A DNA stretch of 12,337 bases from the NCBI GenBank assembly GCA_915069725.1, contig CAJZFF010000014.1, positions 1 to 12,337 on the forward strand, given 5' to 3'. The notes under the pieces are model-generated. The model searched no databases. It was not told the origin of the DNA and saw only the letters and a list, made by a program, of their open reading frames with translations. Source of the stretch: an uncultured Actinomyces sp. (GTDB lineage Bacteria; Actinomycetota; Actinomycetes; Actinomycetales; Actinomycetaceae). Positions 1 to 12,111 of the stretch are shown here, in pieces. Every line of letters starts with the position of its first letter. Within the stretch, counting starts at the first letter, position 1. Position numbers and translations under genes: made by a program.

Positions 1-1172
1 GGGAGCCTGCCCGCCGAGAGGTCCATGGTCATGTGGTAGAGGCGCTCATGAAACCAGCGAACCTTCTCCCGCGTACCCATCGTGTTGACCGGCAGTCTGC
101 CGGAGGAGTCGATCTTGTGGCACAGGGTGAGGAGCGCCTGGAGGTCCTCCAGGGCCGGCCCCTGCTCGTTGTACCAGGCCTGCTCCCAGCCACGGTCCTG
201 GTTGAGGAAGGTTGCGGTGTTGGCGACGACGTCGTCGAGCGTGTCCAGCGCGGCCGATCGTCTTCGCAAGTCGGTCGCCCTGCGGAGCATGGAGAGACCG
301 AACCACTGGGTGCCTCGGGGGCTGCCGAAGTCCTGCCATGACCGGGTCAGGTTCTCGTACTCGTCGCGGAACCAGCGGTAGCGGGCCATGACCTGCGCCC
401 CGTGGGGCTCCTCAGTGGGGATTCGCTGGGCGTGCCGTTCAGTGGCTCGGTAGTCATGGGCGACCTGCGTGTAGTGGCGCAGCGCCTCACCGGCCCGACG
501 GCGGGCCATGAGTCCTCGCCACAGGTAGACACCGATACCGGCGGCACCGATCCCGGCGACCGGGAAGGACACCTGCAGGAGGAAGGCTCTCAGGTCGCTG
601 CGAGGCTTACCGACGTACTTCGTGGACTTCTTCCCCATGGAGACCAGACCCCCGTCCCAGTCCTTCTCCCGGAACTGGGACTTAGCGGCTTCCTGGATGT
701 CGTCCTCCTGGCTGCTCATCACCTTGACGTCCTCACCGAAGTAGCAGCCCACCTTGCGCGAGTCGGGGGCGACCGCCAGGATCACCAGGCCGTCACTCCA
801 GTACTTGGGGTTCGACGTCGAGACCCACGGAACATCAGTGTCGCTCGCATGCGAACGGGCATACTCCAGCACAGCGTCGTCGAGGTTGGAGACGTCCTCA
901 CCCGGCACCGTCAGGACGGCCAGGTGAACCTGCTTGCGGAACTCCAGATTCTTGAGCTTGTCGCTCAGCGCTGTGCTGTCAAGCACGCCGGCCTCGTCCT
1001 GGACCTCGACCGTGGGCCGGTAGGTGGCCACCGCCTCCTTCTTCGATGGCCAGAGCCATACGATCAGCGGCGAGAGGACCAGGGTCAGGCCCAGGACCAT
1101 GATGGCGGTGAAGGCCACCACTGAACGGGTTCCGCCCGAGCGTGTGGCGGGGTTCTGCCCCAGCTGCTCCAT
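1..1172 (-). CDS. Array copy F: TPM-like two-helix membrane protein (C-terminus beyond window)
   Basis: 390 codons are visible and the 3' end lies off the left edge. The ATG at 1172 follows a GGAAG/GTGGGG purine tract, and its N-terminus aligns with the paralogs. Seen: helix 1 at about residues 17-41, then an outside domain opening PTVEVQDEAGVL (53-64). Helix 2 is at about 196-218, followed by the basic MARRR stop-transfer. The cytoplasmic part carries HGAQVMARYRWFRDEYE (257-273) and QWF (289-291). The outside domain has the TPM-type order: a D-A-G opening, a VLTVPG strand, DGLVILAVAP (127-136) and RKVGCYFGED with one cysteine (C143). TPM-family proteins are membrane-anchored outside domains, some with proposed phosphatase or protein-repair roles; the activity here is unknown. 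It is the last array gene seen and is closest in sequence to copy E. I recall DUF5129 as the likely label but have not searched. Confidence 0.85.
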   Translation of the reverse strand, partial: MEQLGQNPATRSGGTRSVVAFTAIMVLGLTLVLSPLIVWLWPSKKEAVATYRPTVEVQDEAGVLDSTALSDKLKNLEFRKQVHLAVLTVPGEDVSNLDDAVLEYARSHASDTDVPWVSTSNPKYWSDGLVILAVAPDSRKVGCYFGEDVKVMSSQEDDIQEAAKSQFREKDWDGGLVSMGKKSTKYVGKPRSDLRAFLLQVSFPVAGIGAAGIGVYLWRGLMARRRAGEALRHYTQVAHDYRATERHAQRIPTEEPHGAQVMARYRWFRDEYENLTRSWQDFGSPRGTQWFGLSMLRRATDLRRRSAALDTLDDVVANTATFLNQDRGWEQAWYNEQGPALEDLQALLTLCHKIDSSGRLPVNTMGTREKVRWFHERLYHMTMDLSAGRL

Positions 1173-1213
1173 CCGAGCCCCACTTCCCTACTGACTGGAT
1201 GTTTTCAGTGCCG

Positions 1214-1219
1214 ATCCTA
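1214..1219 (-). promoter_or_regulatory. Possible -10 element for copy F
   Basis: The minus strand reads TAGGAT here, matching the TAnnnT pattern of actinobacterial -10 elements, 42 bases before the F start codon. No convincing -35 hexamer is visible, because the upstream bases form a GC hairpin. The same TAGGAT word occurs upstream of copy E. Weak evidence on its own. Confidence 0.25.
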
Positions 1220-1222
1220 GCG

Positions 1223-1238
1223 GGGGCCGGGCGGCCCC
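1223..1238 (-). terminator. GC-rich hairpin between E and F
   Basis: A perfect 6-bp inverted repeat (GGGGCC / GGCCCC) with a 4-base loop lies 45 bases after the stop of copy E. There is no T-tract on either strand, so it is not a classical intrinsic terminator. It could pause or partly terminate transcription between E and F, or be chance in GC-rich DNA. Confidence 0.3.
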
Positions 1239-1282
1239 GGAGGCGGGCAGAGACAGCACTGACAGGACCCGCCCGCACCGGC

Positions 1283-2713
1283 TCAGAAGCTTGAGGAGGA
1301 ACCGGACCCGGAGAAGCCGCCGCCACCGCTGTAGCCGCCGGAGAAGCTGCTTCCCGAGAAGCTGGACCCGGAGCCGGAGCTGCTCGACGGCGTGTAGGAG
1401 GAGGCCGAGCTGTATCCCACCACCAGGTCCGAGACCGGGGTGAAAGAGCTGAAGGACCCGCCCGCGCCGACGCCCGAGCTGGACGAACCGGACGAGCCGA
1501 CGGCAGAGATGGCCGGAGACGAGGGGTTGAGGCGGATCGTCGAGTGCGGGTTGTAGCTGCCGTGTCCCCCGCCCAGGTACCAGTAGCCGGCGTAGGCGGC
1601 GTCCGTGGACGAGACCGAGTCGTCGTAGCGACGACGGCGCTCGTCGGCGTAGCTGGAGGTGTCGGCGTCAATGGCCTCGCGTGCGAGCCGGGAGGCCTTC
1701 GTCTTCGTCTCACTGGCGATCTCGTCGAGCTCGTCCAGCGCGGCCGAGGGCTGGAGCGAACCGTCCTCCAACCCGGAGGTCATATCGTCCAAGCGCTGCT
1801 TACGGGAGCGGACCCACTCCCGCTCCTCCTTGGCGCGCTCGGCGATCGAACCGTTCTCGGCGGCGTCGGAGCTGTCGACCTGGTGGCACAGTCTCCGCAA
1901 CGACTGCAGGTCCTCCAGGACCGGCCCCTGCTCGTTGCTCCAGACGCGGTCCCAGCCGGGCGACAGGCTCAGGAAGGTGGCGGTGTTGGCGATGACGTCG
2001 TCGAGGGAGTCCAGGAGCTCGGAACGCTTCTCCAGCTCGGTGGCCCGTCTCAGCACCGACATGCCGAACCACTGGGTGCGGTAGGGGTTGCCGAAGTCCT
2101 GCCAGGAGCGGGTGACCTTCTCATACTCCTCACGGAACCACCGGTAGCGGGCCATGACCTGGGCACCATGCGGCTCATCCTCGGGGATCGTGCCGGCCAG
2201 GAGCTCGCTGGTCTCGTAGTCGTGGGTGACCTGCGAGTAGTGGCGCAGCGCCTCGCGCGCCCGGCGTCGCGCCGCGAAACCGCGCCACAGGTACCACGAG
2301 AGCCAGACGAGGCCCACGAGCGCCGAGATTCCGGGCAGGATGTAGGTCGTGCCCACGTCGCCACCGCCGGGCCGACCGATGACGTCAGCGGTCTTGGCCG
2401 CCATGGAGAGAGTGCCCCCGCACCAGTCAGCCCGGCGGTACTGTTCCTTGGCGGCGTTCTGGATGGCGGCCTGCTGCTCCAGGGGGACCGCGACGTCCTC
2501 ACCGAAGTAGCAGCCGACCTTGCGCGCCTCCGGGGCGACCGCCAGGATCACCAGGCCGTCGCTCCAGTAGTTGGGGTTCGACGTCGAGATCCACGGGACG
2601 TCAGTGTCGCTCGCGTGCGAACGGGCGTACTCCAGCACCGAGTCATTGAGGTTGGTAACGTCCCAGCCCGGAACCGTGAGCACGGCGACGTGGAGGTCCT
2701 GACGGAATCGCAT
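1283..2713 (-). CDS. Array copy E, 3' part: TPM-like membrane protein missing its first helix
   Basis: This 476-aa frame begins MRFRQDLHVAVL, which in the paralogs lies inside the outside domain. It is therefore the continuation of a gene interrupted by the TAG at 2717-2719. Seen: the rest of the TPM-like domain with DGLVILAVAP (52-61) and RKVGCYFGED (64-73), an extra Cys in DWCGG, helix 2 at about 121-143, and cytoplasmic HGAQVMARYRWF (182-193). PSAALDELDEIA (322-333) follows, then ERRRRY (358-363), and a Ser/Gly-rich tail from about 405 ends FSGSGSSSSF. If translated from the ATG at 2713, it would lack the N-terminal export helix, so the TPM part would probably stay inside or the topology would change. 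An AAGGAG lies 9 bases before that ATG, so re-initiation is possible. Alternatives are a young pseudogene, amber readthrough or a base error. Confidence 0.75.
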   Translation of the reverse strand: MRFRQDLHVAVLTVPGWDVTNLNDSVLEYARSHASDTDVPWISTSNPNYWSDGLVILAVAPEARKVGCYFGEDVAVPLEQQAAIQNAAKEQYRRADWCGGTLSMAAKTADVIGRPGGGDVGTTYILPGISALVGLVWLSWYLWRGFAARRRAREALRHYSQVTHDYETSELLAGTIPEDEPHGAQVMARYRWFREEYEKVTRSWQDFGNPYRTQWFGMSVLRRATELEKRSELLDSLDDVIANTATFLSLSPGWDRVWSNEQGPVLEDLQSLRRLCHQVDSSDAAENGSIAERAKEEREWVRSRKQRLDDMTSGLEDGSLQPSAALDELDEIASETKTKASRLAREAIDADTSSYADERRRRYDDSVSSTDAAYAGYWYLGGGHGSYNPHSTIRLNPSSPAISAVGSSGSSSSGVGAGGSFSSFTPVSDLVVGYSSASSYTPSSSSGSGSSFSGSSFSGGYSGGGGFSGSGSSSSF

Positions 2714-2728
2714 CTCCTAGATCTCCTT
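2711..2728 (-). promoter_or_regulatory. In-frame amber codon with adjacent Shine-Dalgarno and ATG in copy E
   Basis: The minus strand reads AAGGAG (2728-2723), then TAG (2719-2717), GAG, and ATG (2713-2711), all in one frame. The spacing from AAGGAG to ATG is 9 bases, which suits ribosome binding. The four intact paralogs have Lys or Arg at the position of the TAG, so one AAG-to-TAG change explains it. Whether re-initiation happens is inference. Confidence 0.5.
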
Positions 2729-2926
2729 GGCCAGCGGCTCGGTCCGGAGTATTCCGGCCTCGTCGTGGACCTCCACGGTGGGGCGATGGCTCCCGCCGAA
2801 GGGCCAGATCACCATGATCGGCAGTACGGCGATGAGGGCAAGGCTCACCGCGATATTGGCGATGAAGGCCGTCACTGACCGGACTCCGCCTAAACCGCCT
2901 CTACAAGACTGTTTCATGTGATTCAT
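2717..2926 (-). CDS. Array copy E, 5' part: 69-aa N-terminal helix fragment
   Basis: This frame encodes the N-terminus of copy E: a short basic leader, a membrane helix at about residues 17-41, WPFGG, then PTVEVHDEAGIL (49-60), ending at the amber codon after LAKEI. The ATG at 2926 is chosen because GGAAAG lies 5 bases upstream and the length before the helix matches the paralogs; the frame is open back to 2989 without a better ribosome site. Alone the product would be a membrane stub with about 28 residues outside. Together with 1283-2713 it gives about 547 codons, the size of copies B-D (536-547 aa), so this is one gene split by a single nonsense codon. Confidence 0.65.
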   Translation of the reverse strand: MNHMKQSCRGGLGGVRSVTAFIANIAVSLALIAVLPIMVIWPFGGSHRPTVEVHDEAGILRTEPLAKEI

Positions 2927-3004
2927 CCACACTTTCCTTTCTTTCTGCGGAAGTAGGGTGTTGAAGGCCTCGATATCCTGGCGGGCCACCGAGGTAGAAG
3001 ACTG

Positions 3005-3010
3005 ATCCTA
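3005..3010 (-). promoter_or_regulatory. Possible -10 element for copy E
   Basis: The minus strand reads TAGGAT in the 94-bp gap between the D stop and the E start, 79 bases upstream of the ATG at 2926. The same word precedes copy F. No good -35 is visible, since that position falls in the last codons of D. Low support. Confidence 0.2.
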
Positions 3011-3020
3011 TCGAGCCGAT

Positions 3021-4664
3021 TCAGAAGCTGGACGACGATCCAGTCCCGGAGAAGCCGCCTCCGTCATAGCCACCGCTGCTGGACGAACCACTTGATCCGG
3101 AGCCGGCACTGATATCCGAAGGAATTGCGGCCGAGTAACCGACGATGAGACTGGATACCGGCGTATGACATATAGGTCCTCCTGAGCTCGAGAACTGATG
3201 CCGTACGACACCGTCGGTCACATCACCAGCACCGCCATCAACTCCCATTAATACGGCCACGTCAGGAGTTCCGGGATTAACGCGAATCGTTGTCCTGGGA
3301 TCATACTCTCCCTTGCTACCAGCGATCTCCCACTTACCTTCATAACGAGACATAGTATTTGCTGGCGGCTCTGACTTCATCTTCTCGTATCGACGCCGGC
3401 GCCTTGAAGAACCCCTAGACCCATCACTCTCAACTATCCTGGCCATCAAGCTGTCCACTCGGACGCGCACACCATCAGAAATTTTGTCTAACTCGCTGAG
3501 CGCCTGCGACGGAGTAACGCTCCCCTCTCTGAGACACGCAGGTAGTCTTCTCAAATGCTGCAGGCAGAGAACCGCCCACTCTCGCTCCTCATCTCCGTCC
3601 ACAGCCACCTTCGACCTCTGAACCTCCCGGCACAGATGCACGAGGGCCTGAATGTCCTCCATGACCGGACCGCACTCGTTATCCCACACAGCAGGCCAGT
3701 CCGATGCCCTTGAGAACAAGATCGCGGCGTGTGAGACGATGGTCTCAAACAACTGCAAAGCATCCGACCGTTCCTTCAGGTCATTGACACTGCGTCGAGT
3801 CGCTCCGACGTACCACTGGAAACCATAAGGTTCGGGCAGCTCATTCCACATCCGGCTGACCTCTGTGTACTCACTGTCGAACCATCGACACCGAGACAGA
3901 ATCAGAGCGCCATGAGTATTATCATCGGGAACGAGTGCAGCGCGTGAGATCGTTTCTTCGTAACCATACACCACCCGGGAGAAGGTCCTACGGGCAATCA
4001 TGTACTTCTTACTGGTATTGGGCCCGCTCCACACATACCAAATGAGCCAAACAGTCGCAACGCCTCCGACACCAAGCAACGTCAGCAAGAAGACAGTCCT
4101 TTGCGAGGTGTTGCCGTTCGCAATAAGATCAGCACTTCGCTCCGCCATCGACTTGACACCGCCATTCCAATCCTTGGCACGGAAGTGATCTTTTGCTGAA
4201 TCCTGAATATCGGCCTGCGACTCTTGCGAAATTTTGAGATCCTCACCAACATAGCACCCCACTTTGCGGCCATCCGGAGCAACAGCAAGGATCAGCAAAC
4301 CGTCGCGCCAGTAGTTCGGATTGTCCTTAGATATCCACGGACTGCCAGCCATCTGAGTCTCCGCGTACTTGAGGACCTCCGCATTAAGGTTCACCACATT
4401 CTGTCCAGGAACTGTGAGAACGGCAAGATAGGTCTTCTTTCTGAAGCGTACTTCCTTCAGATCCGCCTCAAGATCATCAACGTCAAGAGCATTCGCTTCA
4501 TCATGAATCTCAACAACTGGCTCGTAACGTGGCGCATGTTTTTGAGAGTACCAGTTGTCCACAACGAACGGAGAGGCCACGAGAATCGACGCCACACCGA
4601 CGTGAATAAAAAATGACAGAACTGCCCGAAATCCACCGAGACCAACTCCCGCCGCATTCCGCAT
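3021..4664 (-). CDS. Array copy D: TPM-like two-helix membrane protein, low GC
   Basis: 547 aa from the ATG at 4664, chosen over the upstream ATG at 4709 because TAGGA sits 5 bases before it and MRNAAGVGLGGFRAV matches paralog N-termini. Seen: helix 1 (13-36), outside domain with PVVEIHDEANAL (49-60), VLTVPG (82-87), WISKDNPNYW (110-119) and RKVGCYVGED (133-142, sole outside Cys 137). Helix 2 is at 191-212. The cytoplasmic part has HGALILSRCRWF (251-262), a five-Arg RRRRRY stretch, TTIRVNP, and a Ser/Gly tail ending FSGTGSSSSF. It is the most divergent full-length copy: HGAQVMARYRWF has become HGALILSRCRWF, and QWF has become QWY. The base composition is near 50% GC in sampled lines. The function is unknown; it is probably a membrane protein with one outside and one inside domain. 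Confidence 0.85.
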   Translation of the reverse strand: MRNAAGVGLGGFRAVLSFFIHVGVASILVASPFVVDNWYSQKHAPRYEPVVEIHDEANALDVDDLEADLKEVRFRKKTYLAVLTVPGQNVVNLNAEVLKYAETQMAGSPWISKDNPNYWRDGLLILAVAPDGRKVGCYVGEDLKISQESQADIQDSAKDHFRAKDWNGGVKSMAERSADLIANGNTSQRTVFLLTLLGVGGVATVWLIWYVWSGPNTSKKYMIARRTFSRVVYGYEETISRAALVPDDNTHGALILSRCRWFDSEYTEVSRMWNELPEPYGFQWYVGATRRSVNDLKERSDALQLFETIVSHAAILFSRASDWPAVWDNECGPVMEDIQALVHLCREVQRSKVAVDGDEEREWAVLCLQHLRRLPACLREGSVTPSQALSELDKISDGVRVRVDSLMARIVESDGSRGSSRRRRRYEKMKSEPPANTMSRYEGKWEIAGSKGEYDPRTTIRVNPGTPDVAVLMGVDGGAGDVTDGVVRHQFSSSGGPICHTPVSSLIVGYSAAIPSDISAGSGSSGSSSSGGYDGGGFSGTGSSSSF

Positions 4665-4761
4665 CGCTATCCTACTTTCGTCAAGTCGCACTATCGACGG
4701 ACAGCACAACGAAGACCGTCACTATCAAGTGAAAATAGATGAATAACCGGCTCCCCTTCAC

Positions 4762-6372
4762 TCAGAAACTCGACGAAGAACCTGCTCCGGAAAAGCCGCT
4801 ACCAGAACCGTAACCGGTAACGCTCGAACCACTTCCACTGGAGAAGATGCTTTCCCCTCCTGCACTACTATTCAGACTCTCAACGTACCTGGACGACGAG
4901 ACGTAGTCCGACAACAGATGCGCCACAGATCTCATGGCGTCAAACGGAGTTTCGTCATCTGATCCAATAACGCTCGCTCCCGGAGAGTCTGCATTCACAC
5001 AGATCGTGGAGGTGGCATCGTAGTACCGAGAAGTATTGTCGAGAGCCCACAAGCCACCGTAGGCTTTTCCTGACCTCGAACGTTGACGGTCATTGAAGTA
5101 CCGGAGTCGAGACGCAGCCCGTCGAGCCGTCTTTGCCTTCAGAGCATCCCTGGCCAGGCTACGAGCCTCCGCCTTGCAGGCGTTGGACATAATCGTCAGC
5201 TCATCAAGCGCAGCCGACGGGGAGCATGTACCGCTTTCCATTTCAGACGTTACCTGGTTGACACGTAGGCGCCACCAGCGGATCCAGTCGCGAGTCTGAG
5301 ACGTATCCACCGTCATGCGACGAGAGGAGTCTATTTTTGCGCACATCCGCTCAAGCGACTGCAGGTCTTCCATCAGCGGCCCGATCTCGTTATCCCAGAC
5401 ATCCTCCCATCCCGGCGACATCGTCAAGAAACATGATCCGTTGGAAACCGCTTTCTCGAGGGATTCGAGATCGCGGGACCGAGTCCTCAAGGAAAGCGTC
5501 TGCTTGGCCATACCCGCCTGGAACCACTGCGCTCCCGCAGGAGAGCCGAAGTCGTTCCAAGCACGAGTGACATCTTCGTACTCATCACAGAACCAGCGAT
5601 ATCTGGTCAGAATCTGAGCGCCATGTTCCTCGTCATCAGGAATCGTTGACGCACGCAGCTCCGTCGCATCGTAGTCGTGGGTAGCATTCGAATAGCTACG
5701 TAACGCCTCCTTCCCAAAGCGGCGAGCCGTGAGACCACGTCGTATATAGTAGAATAACCACACCGCTCCACATACTGACAGCGCACCTGGAATGACGATC
5801 TTCGTCAGCAAGCCGCCAGGGGGCCTCCCAATCTGGTCGGAGGACGTCTTCGCCATGGCGATCATCCCTCCGTACCAGTCGGCTTCGGAAAACCTATCTC
5901 CACCAGCAGCGTTGATCATGTCCTGCTGCGCCAGTGACACTTTAATGTCGTCTCCGAAGTAGCATCCCACTTTTCTAGAGTCAGGAGCCACCGCCAGGAT
6001 CAGAATTCCATCGGCCCAGTGGTTAGGGTTTGATTGGGATATCCATTTCGATGCACCATCACCGTGATGACGGACATATGCCAGAACCTCCTCATTGAGG
6101 GACGCCTCATTCACTTTAGGAACAGTGAGCACAACAACATGCACTTCTCGCCGGAACTCCATACCCTTAATTTCCGCGATCAATGGAGCCGGCTGAAAGA
6201 GATGAGCATCGTCGCGAACCTCTACTGTTGGATGATATTCTCCCCCGAACGGCCAGAGCCACATGACCGGAAGCGACGAGATCAGTACCAGACACAACAT
6301 AATATTGGACACGAATGCAGTCACTGCCCTCAGCCCTCCAGCACGGATCAGTATCGATGATTGCAATGTCAT
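4762..6372 (-). CDS. Array copy C: TPM-like two-helix membrane protein, low GC
   Basis: 536 aa from the second of two adjacent ATGs (6375 and 6372). AGAGGA is 4 bases before the second and only 1 before the first, so 6372 is preferred; the difference is one residue. Seen (counting from 6375): helix 1 (15-41) ending in WPFGG, outside domain with PTVEVRDDA (49-57), VLTVPK, WISQSNPNHW (111-120) and RKVGCYFGDD (134-143). Helix 2 is at about 193-211. The cytoplasmic part has HGAQILTRYRWF (251-262), GAQWF, a PSAALDELTIM segment and a Ser/Gly tail ending FSGAGSSSSF. The basic RRRRY of other copies is reduced to ASRLRYF. It starts 38 bases after the stop of copy B with no clear promoter between, so B and C are likely cotranscribed. 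The function is not known. Confidence 0.87.
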   Translation of the reverse strand: MTLQSSILIRAGGLRAVTAFVSNIMLCLVLISSLPVMWLWPFGGEYHPTVEVRDDAHLFQPAPLIAEIKGMEFRREVHVVVLTVPKVNEASLNEEVLAYVRHHGDGASKWISQSNPNHWADGILILAVAPDSRKVGCYFGDDIKVSLAQQDMINAAGGDRFSEADWYGGMIAMAKTSSDQIGRPPGGLLTKIVIPGALSVCGAVWLFYYIRRGLTARRFGKEALRSYSNATHDYDATELRASTIPDDEEHGAQILTRYRWFCDEYEDVTRAWNDFGSPAGAQWFQAGMAKQTLSLRTRSRDLESLEKAVSNGSCFLTMSPGWEDVWDNEIGPLMEDLQSLERMCAKIDSSRRMTVDTSQTRDWIRWWRLRVNQVTSEMESGTCSPSAALDELTIMSNACKAEARSLARDALKAKTARRAASRLRYFNDRQRSRSGKAYGGLWALDNTSRYYDATSTICVNADSPGASVIGSDDETPFDAMRSVAHLLSDYVSSSRYVESLNSSAGGESIFSSGSGSSVTGYGSGSGFSGAGSSSSF

Positions 6373-6410
6373 CATGTCCTCTCACTGAGAATGGAAACTT
6401 TTAACATGAC

Positions 6411-8033
6411 TCAGAAGCTGGATGATGAACCGGATCCTGAGAAGTCACCCCCGCCGTAGTCTGCGGAGGAGCTGATTCCCGAGTACCCCGACGATCCATC
6501 TCCACCCGAATAGGAGGACGACCCCGAGGTCGTCGGCGCATAGGATGCGGCGGATTCGTACCCCACCACCAGATCGGATACCGAGGTGAAGGAGCCGAGC
6601 CATCCCGCCCCTTCCCAGCCCGACGAGGAAGTATCGCCACCGAGCGGCGAGCCGGAGAACTGGTAGGTATTCGAGCTGTGGTTACTCCCACCGTCGTCGC
6701 TGGAGAATAACCATTGCCCCGCGCGCATAACATCATGTTCTGAATCTAGTGACGCGAAGTAACGACGGCGACGTTCTTCGGCGTACTTGGACGTATCGGC
6801 GTTCACTGCGCGACGCATGAGATCCAAGGCCTTCTCCCGAACTGATTGCGCCACCCTCTCCAGCTCGTCAAGAGCATCGGAAGGACGTGTCCTGCCGCTC
6901 GCCAACGCTATTTCTATATCGCCGAGGCGCGAGCGCTGCTCCTTGATCCACTTCCGCTCCTTCTTCACACCTAGAGGCACGTCCCGAGATGCGGAGATCG
7001 TATCGCAGAGCGATCTCAACGCCTGCAGGTCCTCCTGCACCCGCCCTTGCTCATTCTCCCATGCCTTCTCCCAGGTCGATGACATGTTGAGGATGGATGC
7101 TGTGTTTGAGATCGTCGCCCCAAGCGACTCCAACATGACAGCGCGCTTCTTCATTTTGGACACACGCTTCAGCATTCTCCAGGCGAACCACTGTGGACCG
7201 CGAGGACGCCCGAGTGCTTGCAGGTCTCTGGTGATGCTCGCATACTCCTGGCGGTACCATCGGTACCACATCCTCACTCGCGCCCCATACGGTTCATTCT
7301 CAGGGATGGTGCGCATATTCAGCTCGACATCCTCGTCGCCGAGGGAGACTCGAGAGTAGCTCTCCGTCAATTCCTTCCCAACGGCTCTTGCACGCAGGCC
7401 ACGACGCAGGTACTTCCGGAGCGCCCATATTCCGATCACGCTTGCCGGAGCCGGGATGATGAAGGTGGTGAGCCAGCTCCCTTCAGCGGGGCGCCCTAAC
7501 AGGTCAGCCGTCTTCTTCGCCATTGCCAGAATTCCATCATCCCACTTATGGTCATTGAATGCCTTTTTCGCAGCACTTTGGATCGACGCTTGCTGGCTCA
7601 AAGGCAGGCGCACATCCTTCCCGAAGTAGCACCCCACCTTCCTGGAATCGGGTGCGACTGCAAGGATAACAACACCATCACTCCAGTAGTTGGAGTTGGA
7701 TGAGGAGATCCACGGCCTTGGAGAATTCTGATGAGCGCGAGCATACTTGAGCACCTCACCATTGAGGTTGTCAATCATGTATCCGGGCACCGAGACGACC
7801 ACGACGTGAACATCTTGACGAAAGCCCACATCCCTTATACTGTCCGCCACTGATTCGTCTGAAAGAATACTAGCCCTGTCATCGATCTCCACCGTTGGGT
7901 GATGCGTTCTTCCGAAGGGCCAGAACCACATGACGGGAAGTGACAGGATGAGCGCCGTAAGCACTGACACACTGACAATAAAACTCAGGTATGAGGACGT
8001 CGCCCTCAGAATCCGAAAAACTACCCTCAACAC
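6411..8033 (-). CDS. Array copy B: TPM-like two-helix membrane protein, low GC
   Basis: 540 aa from the GTG at 8033, chosen over the GTG at 8039 because AGAGG lies 5 bases upstream of the former but abuts the latter. Seen (counting from 8039): helix 1 (18-40) ending in WPFG, outside domain with PTVEIDDRASIL (48-59), VVSVPG, WISSSNSNYW (110-119) and RKVGCYFGKD (133-142). Helix 2 is at about 189-206, followed by RRGLRAR. In the cytoplasmic part the usual motif is altered to YGARVRMWYRWY (251-262), and QWF (283-285), SDALDELERVA and ERRRRY are present. The Ser/Gly/Tyr-rich tail ends FSGSGSSSSF. The stop of a possible 54-codon ORF lies 2 bases before this start, suggesting translational coupling if that ORF is real. 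Enzymatic activity is not assignable. Confidence 0.86.
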   Translation of the reverse strand: MLRVVFRILRATSSYLSFIVSVSVLTALILSLPVMWFWPFGRTHHPTVEIDDRASILSDESVADSIRDVGFRQDVHVVVVSVPGYMIDNLNGEVLKYARAHQNSPRPWISSSNSNYWSDGVVILAVAPDSRKVGCYFGKDVRLPLSQQASIQSAAKKAFNDHKWDDGILAMAKKTADLLGRPAEGSWLTTFIIPAPASVIGIWALRKYLRRGLRARAVGKELTESYSRVSLGDEDVELNMRTIPENEPYGARVRMWYRWYRQEYASITRDLQALGRPRGPQWFAWRMLKRVSKMKKRAVMLESLGATISNTASILNMSSTWEKAWENEQGRVQEDLQALRSLCDTISASRDVPLGVKKERKWIKEQRSRLGDIEIALASGRTRPSDALDELERVAQSVREKALDLMRRAVNADTSKYAEERRRRYFASLDSEHDVMRAGQWLFSSDDGGSNHSSNTYQFSGSPLGGDTSSSGWEGAGWLGSFTSVSDLVVGYESAASYAPTTSGSSSYSGGDGSSGYSGISSSADYGGGDFSGSGSSSSF

Positions 8034-8035
8034 AA

Positions 8036-8200
8036 TCACCTCTTGTCAAGACGACGATAACGCCAAGGCGATCCCGCACCTTGGAACACCCGTCGAATCG
8101 CATCAAAGGCAGTGACACACATCGACATCATTTCGTCGAAAGAATGGCGCGCACCCCCATTCCAACTATTAAATTGGTCATTCACTTCTACTGTATTCAT
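8036..8200 (-). CDS. Possible 54-aa small protein upstream of copy B
   Basis: An open frame starts at the ATG at 8200 (MNTVEVNDQF) and ends LDKR, with its TGA 2 bases before the GTG of copy B. The ribosome site of B (AGAGG) lies in its last codons, a layout typical of coupled genes. The product is soluble-looking, has one Cys and a basic C-terminus, and resembles nothing I know. Against it: no clear Shine-Dalgarno sequence, low third-position GC (though B-D share that), and an alternative reading as B's promoter and leader. Only homologs would settle it. Confidence 0.3.
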   Translation of the reverse strand: MNTVEVNDQFNSWNGGARHSFDEMMSMCVTAFDAIRRVFQGAGSPWRYRRLDKR

Positions 8201-8225
8201 GTTTGTGTTTGCTTCAGGGATTCTT
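8160..8225 (-). promoter_or_regulatory. AT-rich stretch, possible promoter for B-C
   Basis: The 227-bp gap between A and B contains the most AT-rich patch of the window. On the minus strand TACAGT (8195-8190) fits a -10 element, with CTGAAG about 17 bases upstream as a weak -35. This would give a leader of about 150 bases for B and conflicts with the small ORF, whose ATG lies just upstream of the hexamer. Confidence 0.25.
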
Positions 8226-8260
8226 GGGACTGGGATCTGGAAGGGCTGGAGTACCGGGTA

Positions 8261-9274
8261 TCAGTATCCCGGAAAACTTCCATCCCCGAGGAAGCTTCGG
8301 GTCACCGGATGCCGTCGGGGACTCACATGGCTCACCTGGCTCACATGACTCACAGCGTCATCATCGGCCCACTGCCCGTCCCCGGCTCCGCCGGCGATTC
8401 CCACAGTATCCGGCCACCCATCGATGCCTCGCCGGCCTTGCACCTCGGCTCCAGGAAGACCAAGGGAGGGTTCCGCGCCGGCCGCGCTGAGCGACAGGCC
8501 GCGCCCCGCCCGGCGAGCATCGGCCACGATCCAGGCAAGCTCGTCAAGCGCCGCCGAGGGCTGCAGCAAGCCGGCCGACAGTTCCGCGGTCATGTCGCTG
8601 AGGCGCTGGTGGTGGGCCCGCACCAGCTCGCGCACCTCCACCGTGCCGCCGGGAGTCAGCGCACGGGAGTCGAACCACTGGCACTGGCCCAGGAGCAGGT
8701 CGAGCTCGTGAAGAACCGGCTGCTGCTCCTCGCGCCAGAGCCTCTCCCAGTTGGAGGACAGGCTCAGGAACGCGGCGTTGCTGGCGATGATGTCGTCGGT
8801 CGAGTCCAGTGCGGCCGAGCGCTGCTTGATCTCACAGACCCGCTGGAACACTCCCGGTTCGAACCACTGGGCACCCCGGGGGCTGCCGAGGTCCCGCCAG
8901 GAACGGGTCAGGCTCTCGTACTCGTCTCGGAACCAGCGGTAGTGGGCCATGACGCGGGCGCCGCGGGTCTCGCCTTCAGGGATGAGACGGGCATGGAGCT
9001 CGGTGGCCTCGTAGCCGTCGGTGACCTGCGCGTAGTGCCGCAGCGCCTGCTTGAACATGCGCCGGGCGGACAGACCGCGCCACAGGTAGTAGGTGACCCC
9101 GCCGGCACCCAGCAGGGCCGGCAGGAGCGTGAAGGCGGCGACCGAGGGCGCCCACACCACGACGGCCACCGGTGAGAGCACAGCCGCCAGGCCCGCAGTC
9201 ATGATGGCGCAGAAGGACAGCAGCGAGCGGATTCCTCCGAGGCGGACGGCGAGAGGAAGGCGCGTGGGCGGCAT
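8261..9274 (-). CDS. Array copy A: short paralog lacking the outside TPM-like domain
   Basis: 337 aa from the ATG at 9274, chosen because GAGAGGA lies 5 bases upstream and LGGIRSLLSF (12-21) aligns with paralog N-termini; the frame is open to 9478 without such a site. Seen: helix 1 (about 17-42) is followed almost directly by helix 2 (about 45-66, ending YYLWRGLSARR). Then comes the cytoplasmic domain with LRHYAQVTDGYEATEL (78-93), RGARVMAHYRWFRDEYE (104-120), GSPRGAQWF (130-138), LDSTDDIIASNAAFLSLS and PSAALDELAW (239-248). The region between the helices (about 150 residues in paralogs) is gone, and the RRRRY segment and SSSSF end are replaced by an unrelated tail containing a VSHVSQVSHVS repeat. 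It is GC-rich like E and F. It is probably membrane-bound with only the inside domain, either a specialised or a degraded member. Confidence 0.82.
   Translation of the reverse strand: MPPTRLPLAVRLGGIRSLLSFCAIMTAGLAAVLSPVAVVVWAPSVAAFTLLPALLGAGGVTYYLWRGLSARRMFKQALRHYAQVTDGYEATELHARLIPEGETRGARVMAHYRWFRDEYESLTRSWRDLGSPRGAQWFEPGVFQRVCEIKQRSAALDSTDDIIASNAAFLSLSSNWERLWREEQQPVLHELDLLLGQCQWFDSRALTPGGTVEVRELVRAHHQRLSDMTAELSAGLLQPSAALDELAWIVADARRAGRGLSLSAAGAEPSLGLPGAEVQGRRGIDGWPDTVGIAGGAGDGQWADDDAVSHVSQVSHVSPRRHPVTRSFLGDGSFPGY
8321..8356. repeat. Four imperfect 9-bp tandem repeats in the 3' end of copy A
   Basis: Four units read on the plus strand as ACTCACATG, GCTCACCTG, GCTCACATG and ACTCACAGC. On the minus strand they encode the VSHVSQVSHVS part of the unusual tail of copy A. 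Being a multiple of three, unit gain or loss would not shift the frame. This looks like simple replication slippage. Confidence 0.7.
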
Positions 9275-9596: not shown

Positions 9597-9995
9597 TCAG
9601 GACCGGGCGGCGATGGCCTCGATCTCGACACCGGCCCCCAGCGGCAGGGCGGCCACCCCGAAGGCGGCCCGGGCCGGGAGGGTCTCACCGGTGAAGTAGC
9701 GGGCGTAGACCTCGTTGACGGCGGCGAAGTCGGCGATGTCGGCGAGCAGGACCGTGGTCTTGACGACGTCGTCGTACCCGAGGCCGGCCTCGGCCAGGAT
9801 GGCGCCCACGTTCTTGAGGACCTGCTCGGCCTGGGCCTGGATGTCTCCCTCGACGAGCGCGCCGGTGGCCGGGTCGAGCGGCACCTGCCCGGAGACGAAG
9901 ACGAGTGAGCCGGCCTCCTGACCGGTGGAGACGCCCTGGGAGTAGGGGCCGACGGCAGCGGGGGCGTTGGTCGTGACGATACGGCTGACGGTCAT
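9597..9995 (-). CDS. ridA: RidA family enamine/imine deaminase
   Basis: 132 aa, the usual length of the Rid (YjgF/YER057c/UK114) family. RidA hydrolyses reactive enamine/imine intermediates such as 2-aminoacrylate, made by pyridoxal-phosphate enzymes like threonine/serine dehydratase, releasing the keto acid and ammonia; it is a cytosolic trimer. Seen: GPYSQ (16-20), VSGQVPLDP (34-42), the conserved substrate-binding Arg in LPARAAFGV (Arg109), and the closing VEIEAIA with the family's conserved Glu (about 124). These key positions are those of active RidA members. The ATG at 9995 is preceded by GAGG 5 bases upstream, and N-terminal alignment rules out the longer frame to 10103. It is transcribed divergently from pgm, with a large hairpin after its stop. 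Nothing suggests a link with the membrane-protein array. Confidence 0.93.
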
Positions 9996-10428
9996 GGGTT
10001 CCTCGTTCCTGCTGGACGCTGGGGTTCGGCCGCGTCCCCGGTGGGCGGAGCGGCGGCCCGGGTGACAGCGCAGTGGCGCCGACGCCCGGGCCAGACTACC
10101 CATGCCCCTCGCTTCGCCCGCTTCCTAGACTCGGGGTGGTCGACCGCATCCGGGTCGGCGCACCCGCTTCGCTCCCATCAAAGGACTGCCGTGAAGCTGC
10201 CCGCCGGCCGGCGGCACGGGCAGCGGGCATGTCCCTGACTGGCCGCGCCCGCCCCACCGCCCGGGACCTACGGCACTTCCACGACGGTCCTCGCGGCGAG
10301 CCCTCCCACAACGCCGTCGTCGTCGGGCATGGAGCCCCGCCGATCACCGCGTCCCGGCCTCGGAACGGCCAGTGTTTCGCACAGCGAAACGGGCTGATGC
10401 GGCCAGTGGCACGTGACACACTGTGCCC
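9996..10428. other. Divergent spacer between ridA and pgm
   Basis: 433 bases with no supported gene. It must carry promoters for both neighbours. On the minus strand TAGTCT (10098-10093) could be a -10 for ridA; on the plus strand TAGACT (10126-10131) is another -10-like word. The notable structures are a perfect palindrome with flanking direct repeats (10366-10408) and a 15-codon ORF with a good ribosome site (10191-10238). Longer frames across it lack family features. Confidence 0.5.
10366..10408. promoter_or_regulatory. Palindrome between direct repeats upstream of pgm (possible operator)
   Basis: GTTTCGC (10374-10380) and GCGAAAC (10384-10390) form a perfect 7-bp inverted repeat around ACA. 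It sits between two copies of CGGCCAGTG (10366-10374 and 10400-10408), whose starts are 34 bases apart, about three helical turns. The block ends 20 bases before the pgm ATG, where a regulator could block transcription. The regulator is unknown. Confidence 0.4.
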
Positions 10429-12111
10429 ATGCACGCACGCGCAGGACAGCCAGCACAGCCCGAAGACCTCATCGACGTCGACGAGGTCGTCTCCGCCTAC
10501 TACGACCTCGTCCCCGACCCCGCCGTCCCGGCTCAGAAGGTCGTCTTCGGTACCTCCGGGCACCGCGGCTCCTCTCTGGACACGGCCTTCAATGAGGCCC
10601 ACATCGTGGCCACGACTGCCGCCATCGTGGAGTACCGCCGCTCCCAGGGCACCGACGGCACCCTCTACCTGGGCCGCGACACGCACGCCCTGTCCGAACC
10701 CGCCTGGCGCACCGCCGTCGAGGTGCTCGCCGGGGCCGGGGTGACCACCGCCGTCGACGCCCGAGGCGCCTACACGCCCACCCCAGCCGTCTCGCACTCC
10801 ATCCTCCTGGCCAACGGCGCCGGGACCGAGGCGGGGGTGCGCACGAGCGGCCCCGGCCTGGCCGACGGCATTGTGGTGACCCCCTCCCACAACCCGCCGC
10901 GCGACGGCGGCTTCAAGTACAACCCGCCCACCGGCGGCCCGGCCGGCTCGGAGGCCACCACGTGGATCGCCAACCGCGCCAACGAGCTGCTCGCCTCCGG
11001 GTGGCAGGACGTCCCGCGGGTCCCGGTCGCTGAGGCCCTCGACGGCCCCCACATCATCAAGCACGACTACCTGGAGACCTACGTCACCGACCTGGAGAGC
11101 GTCATCGACCTCGAGGCGATCCGCAAGGCCGGCGTGCGCATCGGGGCCGACCCGCTGGGCGGCGCCTCGGTGGACTACTGGGGCGCGATCGGTGAGCGCT
11201 ACGGCCTGGAGCTCACGGTGGTCAACCCCGAGGTGGACCCGGCCTGGCACTTCATGACCCTGGACTGGGACGGCAAGATCCGCATGGACTGCTCCTCCCC
11301 CAACGCCATGGCCTCGCTGCGCTCCACGATGACGCCCGACGCCGAGGGCAGGACCCCCTACGACGTCGCCACCGGGAACGACGCCGACTCCGACCGCCAC
11401 GGCATCGTCACCCCCGACGGCGGGCTCATGAACCCCAACCACTTCCTGGCCGTGGCCATCGAGTACCTCTTCACCCACCGCCCCGGCTGGCCCGAGGGCT
11501 GCGCGGTGGGCAAGACGCTGGTCTCCTCCAGCCTCATCGACCGGGTGGCCGCCGCCATCGGCCGCACCCTCATCGAGGTGCCGGTGGGATTCAAGCACTT
11601 CGTGCCCGGGCTGCTCGACGGCTCGATCGGTTTCGGGGGCGAGGAGAGCGCGGGAGCCTCCTTCCTGCGCAAGGACGGCACCGTGTGGACCACGGACAAG
11701 GACGGCATCATCCTGGCCCTCCTGGCCAGCGAGATCATCGCCGTCACCGGCAAGTCCCCCTCACAGCTGCATGAGGAGCAGGTGGAGCGCTTCGGCGCCA
11801 GCGCCTACGCGCGCATCGACGCCGCCGCCTCCAAGGAGGAGAAGGCCAAGCTCGCCGCCCTGGCCGCCGAGGACGTGACCGCCACCGAGCTGGCCGGCGA
11901 GGAGATCACCGCCCGGCTGGTCGACGCACCCGGCAACGGGGCCCCCATCGGCGGGCTCAAGGTCACCACCGAGGACGCCTGGTTCGCCGCGCGCCCCTCG
12001 GGCACGGAGGACGTCTACAAGATCTACGCCGAGTCCTTCCAGGGTGCCGACCACCTGACCCAGGTCCAGGAGGAGGCCAAGAAGGTAGTCTCCGCGGCCC
12101 TGAGCGGCTGA
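10429..12111 (+). CDS. pgm: Phosphoglucomutase, alpha-D-glucose-phosphate specific
   Basis: 560 aa, close to the usual size (E. coli Pgm 546 aa). It interconverts glucose 1-phosphate and glucose 6-phosphate in the cytosol, linking glycogen and cell-wall sugar nucleotides with glycolysis. All four active-site elements of the alpha-phosphohexomutase family are visible. These are the phosphoserine loop [11 protein letters not shown] (Ser at about 153), the metal loop [10 protein letters not shown] (about 317-326), the sugar-binding GEESAG (about 404-409) and the phosphate-binding RPSGTED (about 522-528). FGTSGHRG (40-47) near the N-terminus is also typical. The ATG at 10429 fits the actinobacterial N-terminus MxxRAGQPA; a GTG at 10423 would add two residues. 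No Shine-Dalgarno precedes either, so translation may be leaderless. The codon use is strongly GC-rich, and the gene appears intact and native. Confidence 0.96.

What the first reader, a model, noticed from the sequence alone, without database searches (positions are those of the whole stretch)
1..9274. Six-member head-to-tail array of TPM-like membrane protein paralogs
A to F share the helix 1 context, helix 2 with a basic RGLxARR-like follow-up, and the cytoplasmic core; five of six share the outside domain. Six adjacent copies in one orientation suggest selection for dosage or diversity, as in surface-interaction or toxin/immunity families. The outside domain resembling TPM is inference from motif order and the Ser/Gly C-terminus typical of YgcG-type proteins.
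Basis: partly seen in the sequence, partly recalled or inferred. Interest (0 to 1): 0.7.

Follow-up and report, generated by a model that had tools for sequence, protein, structure and literature searches.

The report
Shuffled array of TPM membrane proteins
An Actinomyces chromosome carries a row of six related membrane proteins of an uncharacterised family; the row is real, its outside domain has the TPM fold, and related genomes hold different subsets of the same genes in the same order, so the locus seems to be reshuffled between strains for reasons that remain untested.

Summary

The paralogs are old, each in its own 100%-supported group, so dosage is not the reason. In 12 related genomes the locus keeps F at its ridA end and holds different subsets of modules in one order, F-E-D-C-B-A-XYZ. 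Between the window and one six-copy relative, dS is 0.04 for C, 0.67-0.70 for D and E, 0.60 for F, against 0.17 for flanking pgm and ridA: mosaic exchange. C, D and E are GC-poor. dN/dS of whole genes is 0.13-0.51 and the outside domain is not hypervariable. TPM-less paralogs arose more than once.

Most likely these are membrane scaffold or assembly factors whose repertoire is swapped among oral Actinomyces; function is inferred, not shown. No toxin or defence link was found in what was scanned.

The parts
3..1172 (-). copy A: DUF5129 with TPM domain, cut at its C-terminal end by the window edge
   Evidence: PF17173 209 bits, PF04536 37.3 bits; 98% nt to L040, 93% to L034
1283..2926 (-). copy B: DUF5129 with TPM domain, interrupted by one in-frame TAG stop at 2717-2719 (pieces 2720-2926 and 1283-2713)
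   Evidence: intact orthologs in relatives
3021..4664 (-). copy C: DUF5129 with TPM domain, GC 0.54
   Evidence: PF17173 167 bits, PF04536 33.1 bits; 99% aa to L034, dS 0.037
4762..6375 (-). copy D: DUF5129 with TPM domain, GC 0.55; the copy that was modelled
   Evidence: AlphaFold2 mean pLDDT 84.0, pTM 0.63; TPM fold
6411..8039 (-). copy E: DUF5129 with TPM domain, GC 0.57
   Evidence: 95% aa to L033 and 72% to L034
8261..9274 (-). copy F: TPM-less DUF5129 core, first gene of the array, own tail FLGDGSFPGY
   Evidence: PF17173 profile positions 147-337 only; orthologs are the family gene nearest ridA in 12 relatives
2943..8462 (.). about 5.5 kb GC-poor E-D-C block, absent from 10 of the 12 related loci that have F
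   Evidence: F alignments end at window 8463-8495 and B alignments at 2934-2956 in L035, L038, L039, L040 and L053; the F end also breaks at 8473 in L034, which has the block, so that edge partly reflects F's own divergent 3' end
9597..9986 (-). ridA (Rid family), conserved flank; the start is my choice within the ORF 9597-10103
   Evidence: PF01042, TIGR00004
10423..12111 (+). pgm phosphoglucomutase, conserved flank
   Evidence: TIGR01132 868 bits

Best explanation
The locus is a recombining tandem array of DUF5129 membrane scaffold proteins. Shown or predicted: a full copy has an N-terminal membrane helix, a TPM domain, a second helix (weakly hydrophobic in E), a long helical core and a Ser/Gly-rich tail that ends in a conserved GSSSxF. 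F keeps only the membrane anchor and the core, with its own tail. Genomes hold different subsets of the modules in one order, and single modules have been exchanged between species. Inferred: TPM lies outside and the core inside; the core is the oligomerising part; TPM helps assemble or stabilise an envelope protein complex, as TPM proteins are thought to do elsewhere; F is a constant TPM-less partner at the head of an operon; the GC-poor C, D and E and the XYZ genes are imported variants for other clients or conditions. The most likely force is selection for a varied repertoire acting through loss and homologous replacement of whole genes.
For: Family and TPM. Tail: GSSSxF ends 48 of 87 family rows, the other 39 being TPM-less, XYZ, short, cut or broken genes, and 120 of 120 listed homologs, which are the best-scoring of 384; it recurs in other genera. 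Module order and copy number. Mosaic dS with flanking controls; patchy content on a pgm tree, each module needing 2-3 changes. Each of the 12 fetched loci that holds any ortholog of A-E or XYZ also has F as the family gene nearest ridA. In another genus TPM-less genes flank a full-length gene in 6 of 9 fetched loci; TPM state changes at least 4 times on the core tree. TPM as assembly helper: passages of PMC11237479 and PMC12419801 and of PMC8267372, where the TPM protein CcoZ is important for cbb3 oxidase activity and is found in one gel band with it.
Against: No client, interaction, topology or expression was shown. Four genomes have only a TPM-less copy (L036, L064, L065, L066), so a full-length partner is not always needed; three of nine loci in the other genus have only full-length copies (L112-L114). 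Broken copies (B here and in L041, D in L033) show that single copies are dispensable. The core has no convincing PDB match, so oligomerisation is a guess. TPM scores are low in E and D, under the cut-off in the one Z gene scanned and absent in the one X and one Y gene scanned.
Confidence: 0.42

Rival explanations
1. Neutral birth-and-death: tandem homology and recombination make copies come and go, and copy number has no selected meaning; only B and F matter.
For: Broken copies: B here, B in L041, D in L033. One Pfam match suffices in 25 of 49 genus genomes and 6 have none. Local conversion between A and B.
Against: C, D and E are intact in the window and L034 and under purifying selection (dN/dS 0.13-0.25 in five pairs). 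GC-poor C reached two species recently (dS 0.037).
Confidence: 0.22
2. Immunity array: the paralogs protect against contact-dependent or secreted membrane toxins of neighbours, like the tandem tsaI/DUF443 membrane immunity genes of S. aureus.
For: Tandem, diverged, variable-number membrane paralogs with decayed members; TsaI arrays look alike in layout (PMC9484751, abstract and section 17). TPM fused to a toxin domain is reported in PMC12419801 (passage).
Against: No toxin family among ten flank ORFs scanned, though six had no match at all; proteins of about 540 aa with a folded outside domain; no PADLOC match in 9 proteins; no hypervariable face found.
Confidence: 0.1
3. Surface-recognition locus: variants set the susceptibility to phage, bacteriocin or Saccharibacteria epibionts.
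For: Gene-content diversity and between-species exchange. In PMC7784981 (passages and abstract seen) 'TPM domain' is enriched in TM7x-resistant and nonpermissive Actinomyces: 10/10 and 3/3 against 4/10 permissive, q 0.037.
Against: That enrichment follows clades and names a domain, not this locus. TPM is not more variable than the core among 120 homologs, and whole-gene dN/dS is 0.13-0.51.
Confidence: 0.12
4. It is the Actinomyces counterpart of the mycobacterial bcc:aa3 supercomplex TPM subunit (Msmeg_4692) and serves the terminal oxidase.
For: Solved-structure matches include 8ovc, 6adq, 8hcr and 6hwh supercomplex chains.
Against: 29 of 43 genus genomes with DUF5129 have no COX1-family match; the COX1 matches found sit in frames of 789-912 aa, which I take (recall) for nitric oxide reductases. 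The matched mycobacterial chains are 142-145 residues and cannot hold the long core.
Confidence: 0.04

Closest known systems
Pfam DUF5129 (PF17173), e.g. C. glutamicum cg3192
   Same: All six copies score 2.8 to 7.7 times the family cut-off. One paper of the held library names the family: a transposon hit between glfT2 and cg3192 in a cell-envelope screen, the authors leaning to glfT2 (PMC7775120, passages).
   Different: The modular array, the TPM-less head gene and the mosaic exchange are not in the passages seen.
TPM proteins (TLP18.3, Psb32, BA41/BA42, cg2496, Msmeg_4692, CcoZ)
   Different: Here TPM is followed by a second helix, a core of about 200 residues and a conserved tail; phosphatase or ATPase activity was not tested.
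Tandem immunity arrays esaG, tsaI, tipC (PMC9484751, abstract and section 17)
   Same: Strings of diverged paralogs; for esaG and tipC recombination between paralogs, as in one patch of A and B here.
   Different: No toxin seen next to the array; large two-sided membrane proteins; the main signal is exchange of whole genes between genomes with the order kept.

Membership tests
DUF5129 (PF17173) | Pfam gathering score 27.3 bits | tested here: met
   209, 206 (B C-terminal piece), 167, 193, 191, 76 bits
TPM_phosphatase (PF04536) | Pfam gathering score 22.1 bits in each copy | tested here: inconclusive
   met in A 37.3, C 33.1, D 28.1, E 25.9; not in F, nor in B's two pieces, which part the domain
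TPM_phosphatase (PF04536) | TPM fold | tested here: met
TPM_phosphatase (PF04536) | phosphatase or nucleotidase activity | not testable with these tools
   disputed in the passages read
YgcG-type TPM protein | Ser/Gly-rich C-terminal tail after the membrane helix (recalled) | tested here: inconclusive
   S+G 52-67% of the last 60 residues in B, C, D, E, 28% in F, A's end not in the window, but a helical core of about 200 residues lies between helix 2 and the tail
bcc:aa3 supercomplex TPM subunit | co-occurrence with a haem-copper oxidase | tested here: not met
   no COX1 match in 29 of 43 DUF5129-bearing genus genomes
Secreted-toxin immunity array | toxin gene at the array | tested here: inconclusive
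   ridA and pgm on one side; DUF5926 or ORFs without a match on the other side in relatives; the window ends inside A
Anti-phage defence protein | match to a PADLOC model | tested here: not met
   0 of 9 proteins at E 0.01; the library is of 2023

The most novel reading that the evidence does not exclude
The interval beside ridA in the A. oris group is an exchange site at which oral Actinomyces trade whole two-sided membrane scaffold genes. Each strain's set, a constant TPM-less partner F plus a variable choice of TPM-bearing partners, determines which envelope complexes, neighbours or epibionts it can deal with. This would be a combinatorial membrane-protein repertoire unlike known antigen or immunity arrays, in which recurrent loss of the outside domain makes new partner subunits.
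Probability: 0.15. Interest if true: 0.7.

Novelty: new variant of a known kind. Interest (0 to 1): 0.45.

Why it matters
TPM proteins are widespread and their function is disputed, and DUF5129 has none assigned. Here nature offers related strains that differ in which paralogs they carry, with a constant TPM-less companion, so function could be read from gene removals in a tractable oral bacterium. If the repertoire sets interaction with neighbours or Saccharibacteria, it would explain part of the strain-to-strain differences in the dental biofilm.

Tried and rejected
Recent duplication for dosage: rejected. C, D and E lie 1.2-1.8 changes per column from the nearest other group, while their orthologs are 0.012-0.38 away; A and B, closer, are still only 60% identical.

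Hypervariable outside domain: not seen. Against this, TPM of A between the window and L039 has dN/dS 0.82 (dS 0.04) and TPM of B between L040 and L035 0.58 (dS 0.07); both rest on very few synonymous changes. One TPM stretch of B (residues 61-75) is among the more variable.

Phage origin: the only phage record with a match, MT835538.1, carries frames that I read as bacterial household genes (cysteine synthase, tryptophanyl-tRNA synthetase, LacI type and others)'s translations, without a family search; I take it for a mislabelled bacterial contig. Two plasmid records match, 28-30% identical Arthrobacter genes. Only D was used as query there.

Core fold: Foldseek gave no PDB match at E under 0.001 for D or F; the rows for the core are de novo bundles and mixed helical proteins. 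In the viral library the two best rows, at E 0.005 and 0.016, are phage proteins named COG1512; the rest are at E 0.48 or worse.

Promoters and terminators: no more than shuffles give. NCBIfam has no match for A, B's long piece, C, D, E or F. General TPM tails in the order: frames were picked badly for most of the 30 loci, so no count is given; L076 and L078 end in Ser/Gly tails with a final F. A search for papers holding PF04536 gave none.

Full report
What is there. The window holds ridA (about 9597-9986, minus) and pgm (10423-12111, plus), and from 9274 down to the first base six minus-strand genes F, E, D, C, B, A. All match Pfam DUF5129; A, C, D and E also match TPM_phosphatase above its cut-off. 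Helix 1 passes a hydropathy limit in all six, helix 2 in A, B, C and D only. B carries an in-frame TAG at 2717-2719, and its 3' piece could restart only without helix 1; intact B copies exist in relatives. A is cut by the window edge.

Tail. GSSSxF is the C-terminus of 48 of 87 family rows. The 39 others are 13 F-type genes ((F/Y)(L/F)GDG(T/S)FPG in 12 of 13), 15 X, Y and Z genes, 4 TPM-less singletons, two short 218-221 aa genes, and five that are cut or whose frame is broken (win_A, L069, L051, both L041 pieces of B). All 120 listed homologs end this way, but these are the best-scoring, B-like ones out of 384 found. The same ending occurs in other genera and in MT835538.1.

Distribution. DUF5129 matches occur in 43 of 49 genus genomes: none in 6, one match in 25, two in 11, three or more in 7 (these are Pfam matches, so a broken gene can count twice, as B does in G012). 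In a drawn sample of the phylum 4 of 246 match, and only G001 is over the cut-off; in a sample of the family 23 of 151, 22 over the cut-off. I fetched the locus of 40 of the 43 genus genomes: 33 of 40 have ridA and/or pgm in the fetched stretch. In each genome with several matches they lie within one locus.

Module map. Window: F E D C B(stop) A(cut). L034: F E D C B A. L033: F E d X Y Z, d being a D fragment. L039 and L040: F B A X Y Z. L053: F B X Y Z. L054: F X Y Z. L035, L038, L043, L055, L056: F B. L041: F and a broken B. The order is the same throughout. F is the family gene nearest ridA in all 12 relatives; in L040 a 2.6 kb gap with another ORF lies between. A DUF5926 gene follows the array in L034 and L043: its cluster occurs in 9 of 23 loci, of which L031 and L034 are one; two members were identified by Pfam. 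The E-D-C block is absent in 10 of the 12: F alignments break at window 8463-8495 and B alignments at 2934-2956 in L035, L038, L039, L040 and L053. But F also breaks at 8473 in L034, which has the block, so that edge partly reflects F's own divergent 3' end. GC3 is 0.57, 0.59 and 0.67 in C, D and E, against 0.87, 0.91 and 0.80 in A, B and F; the flank is at GC 0.71-0.73.

Age and exchange. In an 87-row tree A, C, D, E and F each form a 100%-supported group with their orthologs, and B a 12-row 100% group; C, D and E lie 1.2-1.8 changes per column from the nearest other group (quick method, long branches, deep order uncertain). Between the window and L034, dS is A 0.153, B (long piece) 0.207, C 0.037, D 0.666, E 0.698, F 0.599, with pgm 0.166 and ridA 0.168 as controls. 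The two lie on opposite sides of a 100/100 branch in a pgm tree of 13 rows, and the modules need 2 or 3 changes each there (single gene, 6 of 10 forks open, D counted as present in L033 and B in L041, XYZ unknown for the window). So C was exchanged recently, while D, E and F are divergent alleles. Within the window, A and B share a stretch (about 723-857 and 2489-2623) at dS 0.16-0.21, against 0.32-1.37 in the other windows: local gene conversion.

Selection. Whole-gene dN/dS in 23 pairs ran from 0.13 to 0.51, highest in an F pair; of 17 pairs split by domain, TPM dN is above core dN in 9, below in 6 and equal in 2. Among 120 B-type homologs the most variable stretches are the N-terminus and helix 2, with one TPM helix (residues 61-75) next, and the least variable include the TPM heart and the tail; averaged over the printed bins TPM and core are alike. 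This speaks against an antigenic outside domain.

TPM-less paralogs. F is in all 12 fetched loci that hold any A-E ortholog or XYZ gene. In another genus 9 loci were fetched: 6 show TPM-less, full-length, TPM-less (in L110 the full-length gene is split), and 3 have one or two full-length genes only. A 106-row core tree, from which I dropped six short or broken rows, needs at least four changes of TPM state, with weak deep branches; X, Y and Z genes were counted as TPM-bearing. Four genomes have a TPM-less copy alone (L036, L064-L066), which argues against an obligatory pair.

Function. TPM proteins are discussed as assembly helpers of membrane complexes in PMC11237479 and PMC12419801 (passages), and CcoZ of C. 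jejuni is important for oxidase activity and is found in a gel band with it (PMC8267372, passages). A terminal-oxidase role is unlikely here because 29 of 43 DUF5129 genomes lack a COX1-family match. PMC7784981 lists 'TPM domain' as enriched in TM7x-resistant and nonpermissive Actinomyces (passages), a lead confounded by clade. PMC7775120 gives an ambiguous envelope hit for a DUF5129 gene (passages). I commit to a scaffold or assembly role with a strain-variable repertoire at 0.42, and keep neutral turnover as the main rival.

Literature. The word DUF5129 occurs in 1 paper of the held library; a search for Actinomyces oris, tandem, membrane protein and DUF5129 (three of four terms) gave 8 papers, of which the 5 listed do not hold DUF5129. 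I know of no description of this array, but subscription journals are mostly not held.

Noticed in passing
window about 723-857 and 2489-2623: A and B share a patch at dS 0.16-0.21 against 0.32-1.37 in the other windows: local gene conversion inside TPM.
   Followed up: partly
L103 (MT835538.1) 4857-6437: A record labelled Bacteriophage sp. looks like an actinobacterial chromosome piece and holds a 526 aa DUF5129 gene that ends GFSGAGSSSRF.
   Followed up: partly
L033 10258-10671; L041 6593-8402; L051; L069: Decayed or frame-broken family members in relatives; some may be assembly errors.
   Followed up: no
L040 14295-16700; L034 2791-4884: An ORF of 700-800 aa of one cluster lies between F and ridA in L040 and between ridA and pgm in L034; the L034 one has no Pfam match. 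A second variable spot, or an antisense frame.
   Followed up: no
genus genomes: COX1-family matches in frames of 789-912 aa occur in 16 of 49 genomes, including all six with four or more DUF5129 matches; probably clade-linked.
   Followed up: no
L045 7450-8106 and L050 7383-8048: Short genes (218-221 aa) that resemble only the end of the DUF5129 core follow the full copy on the same strand.
   Followed up: no
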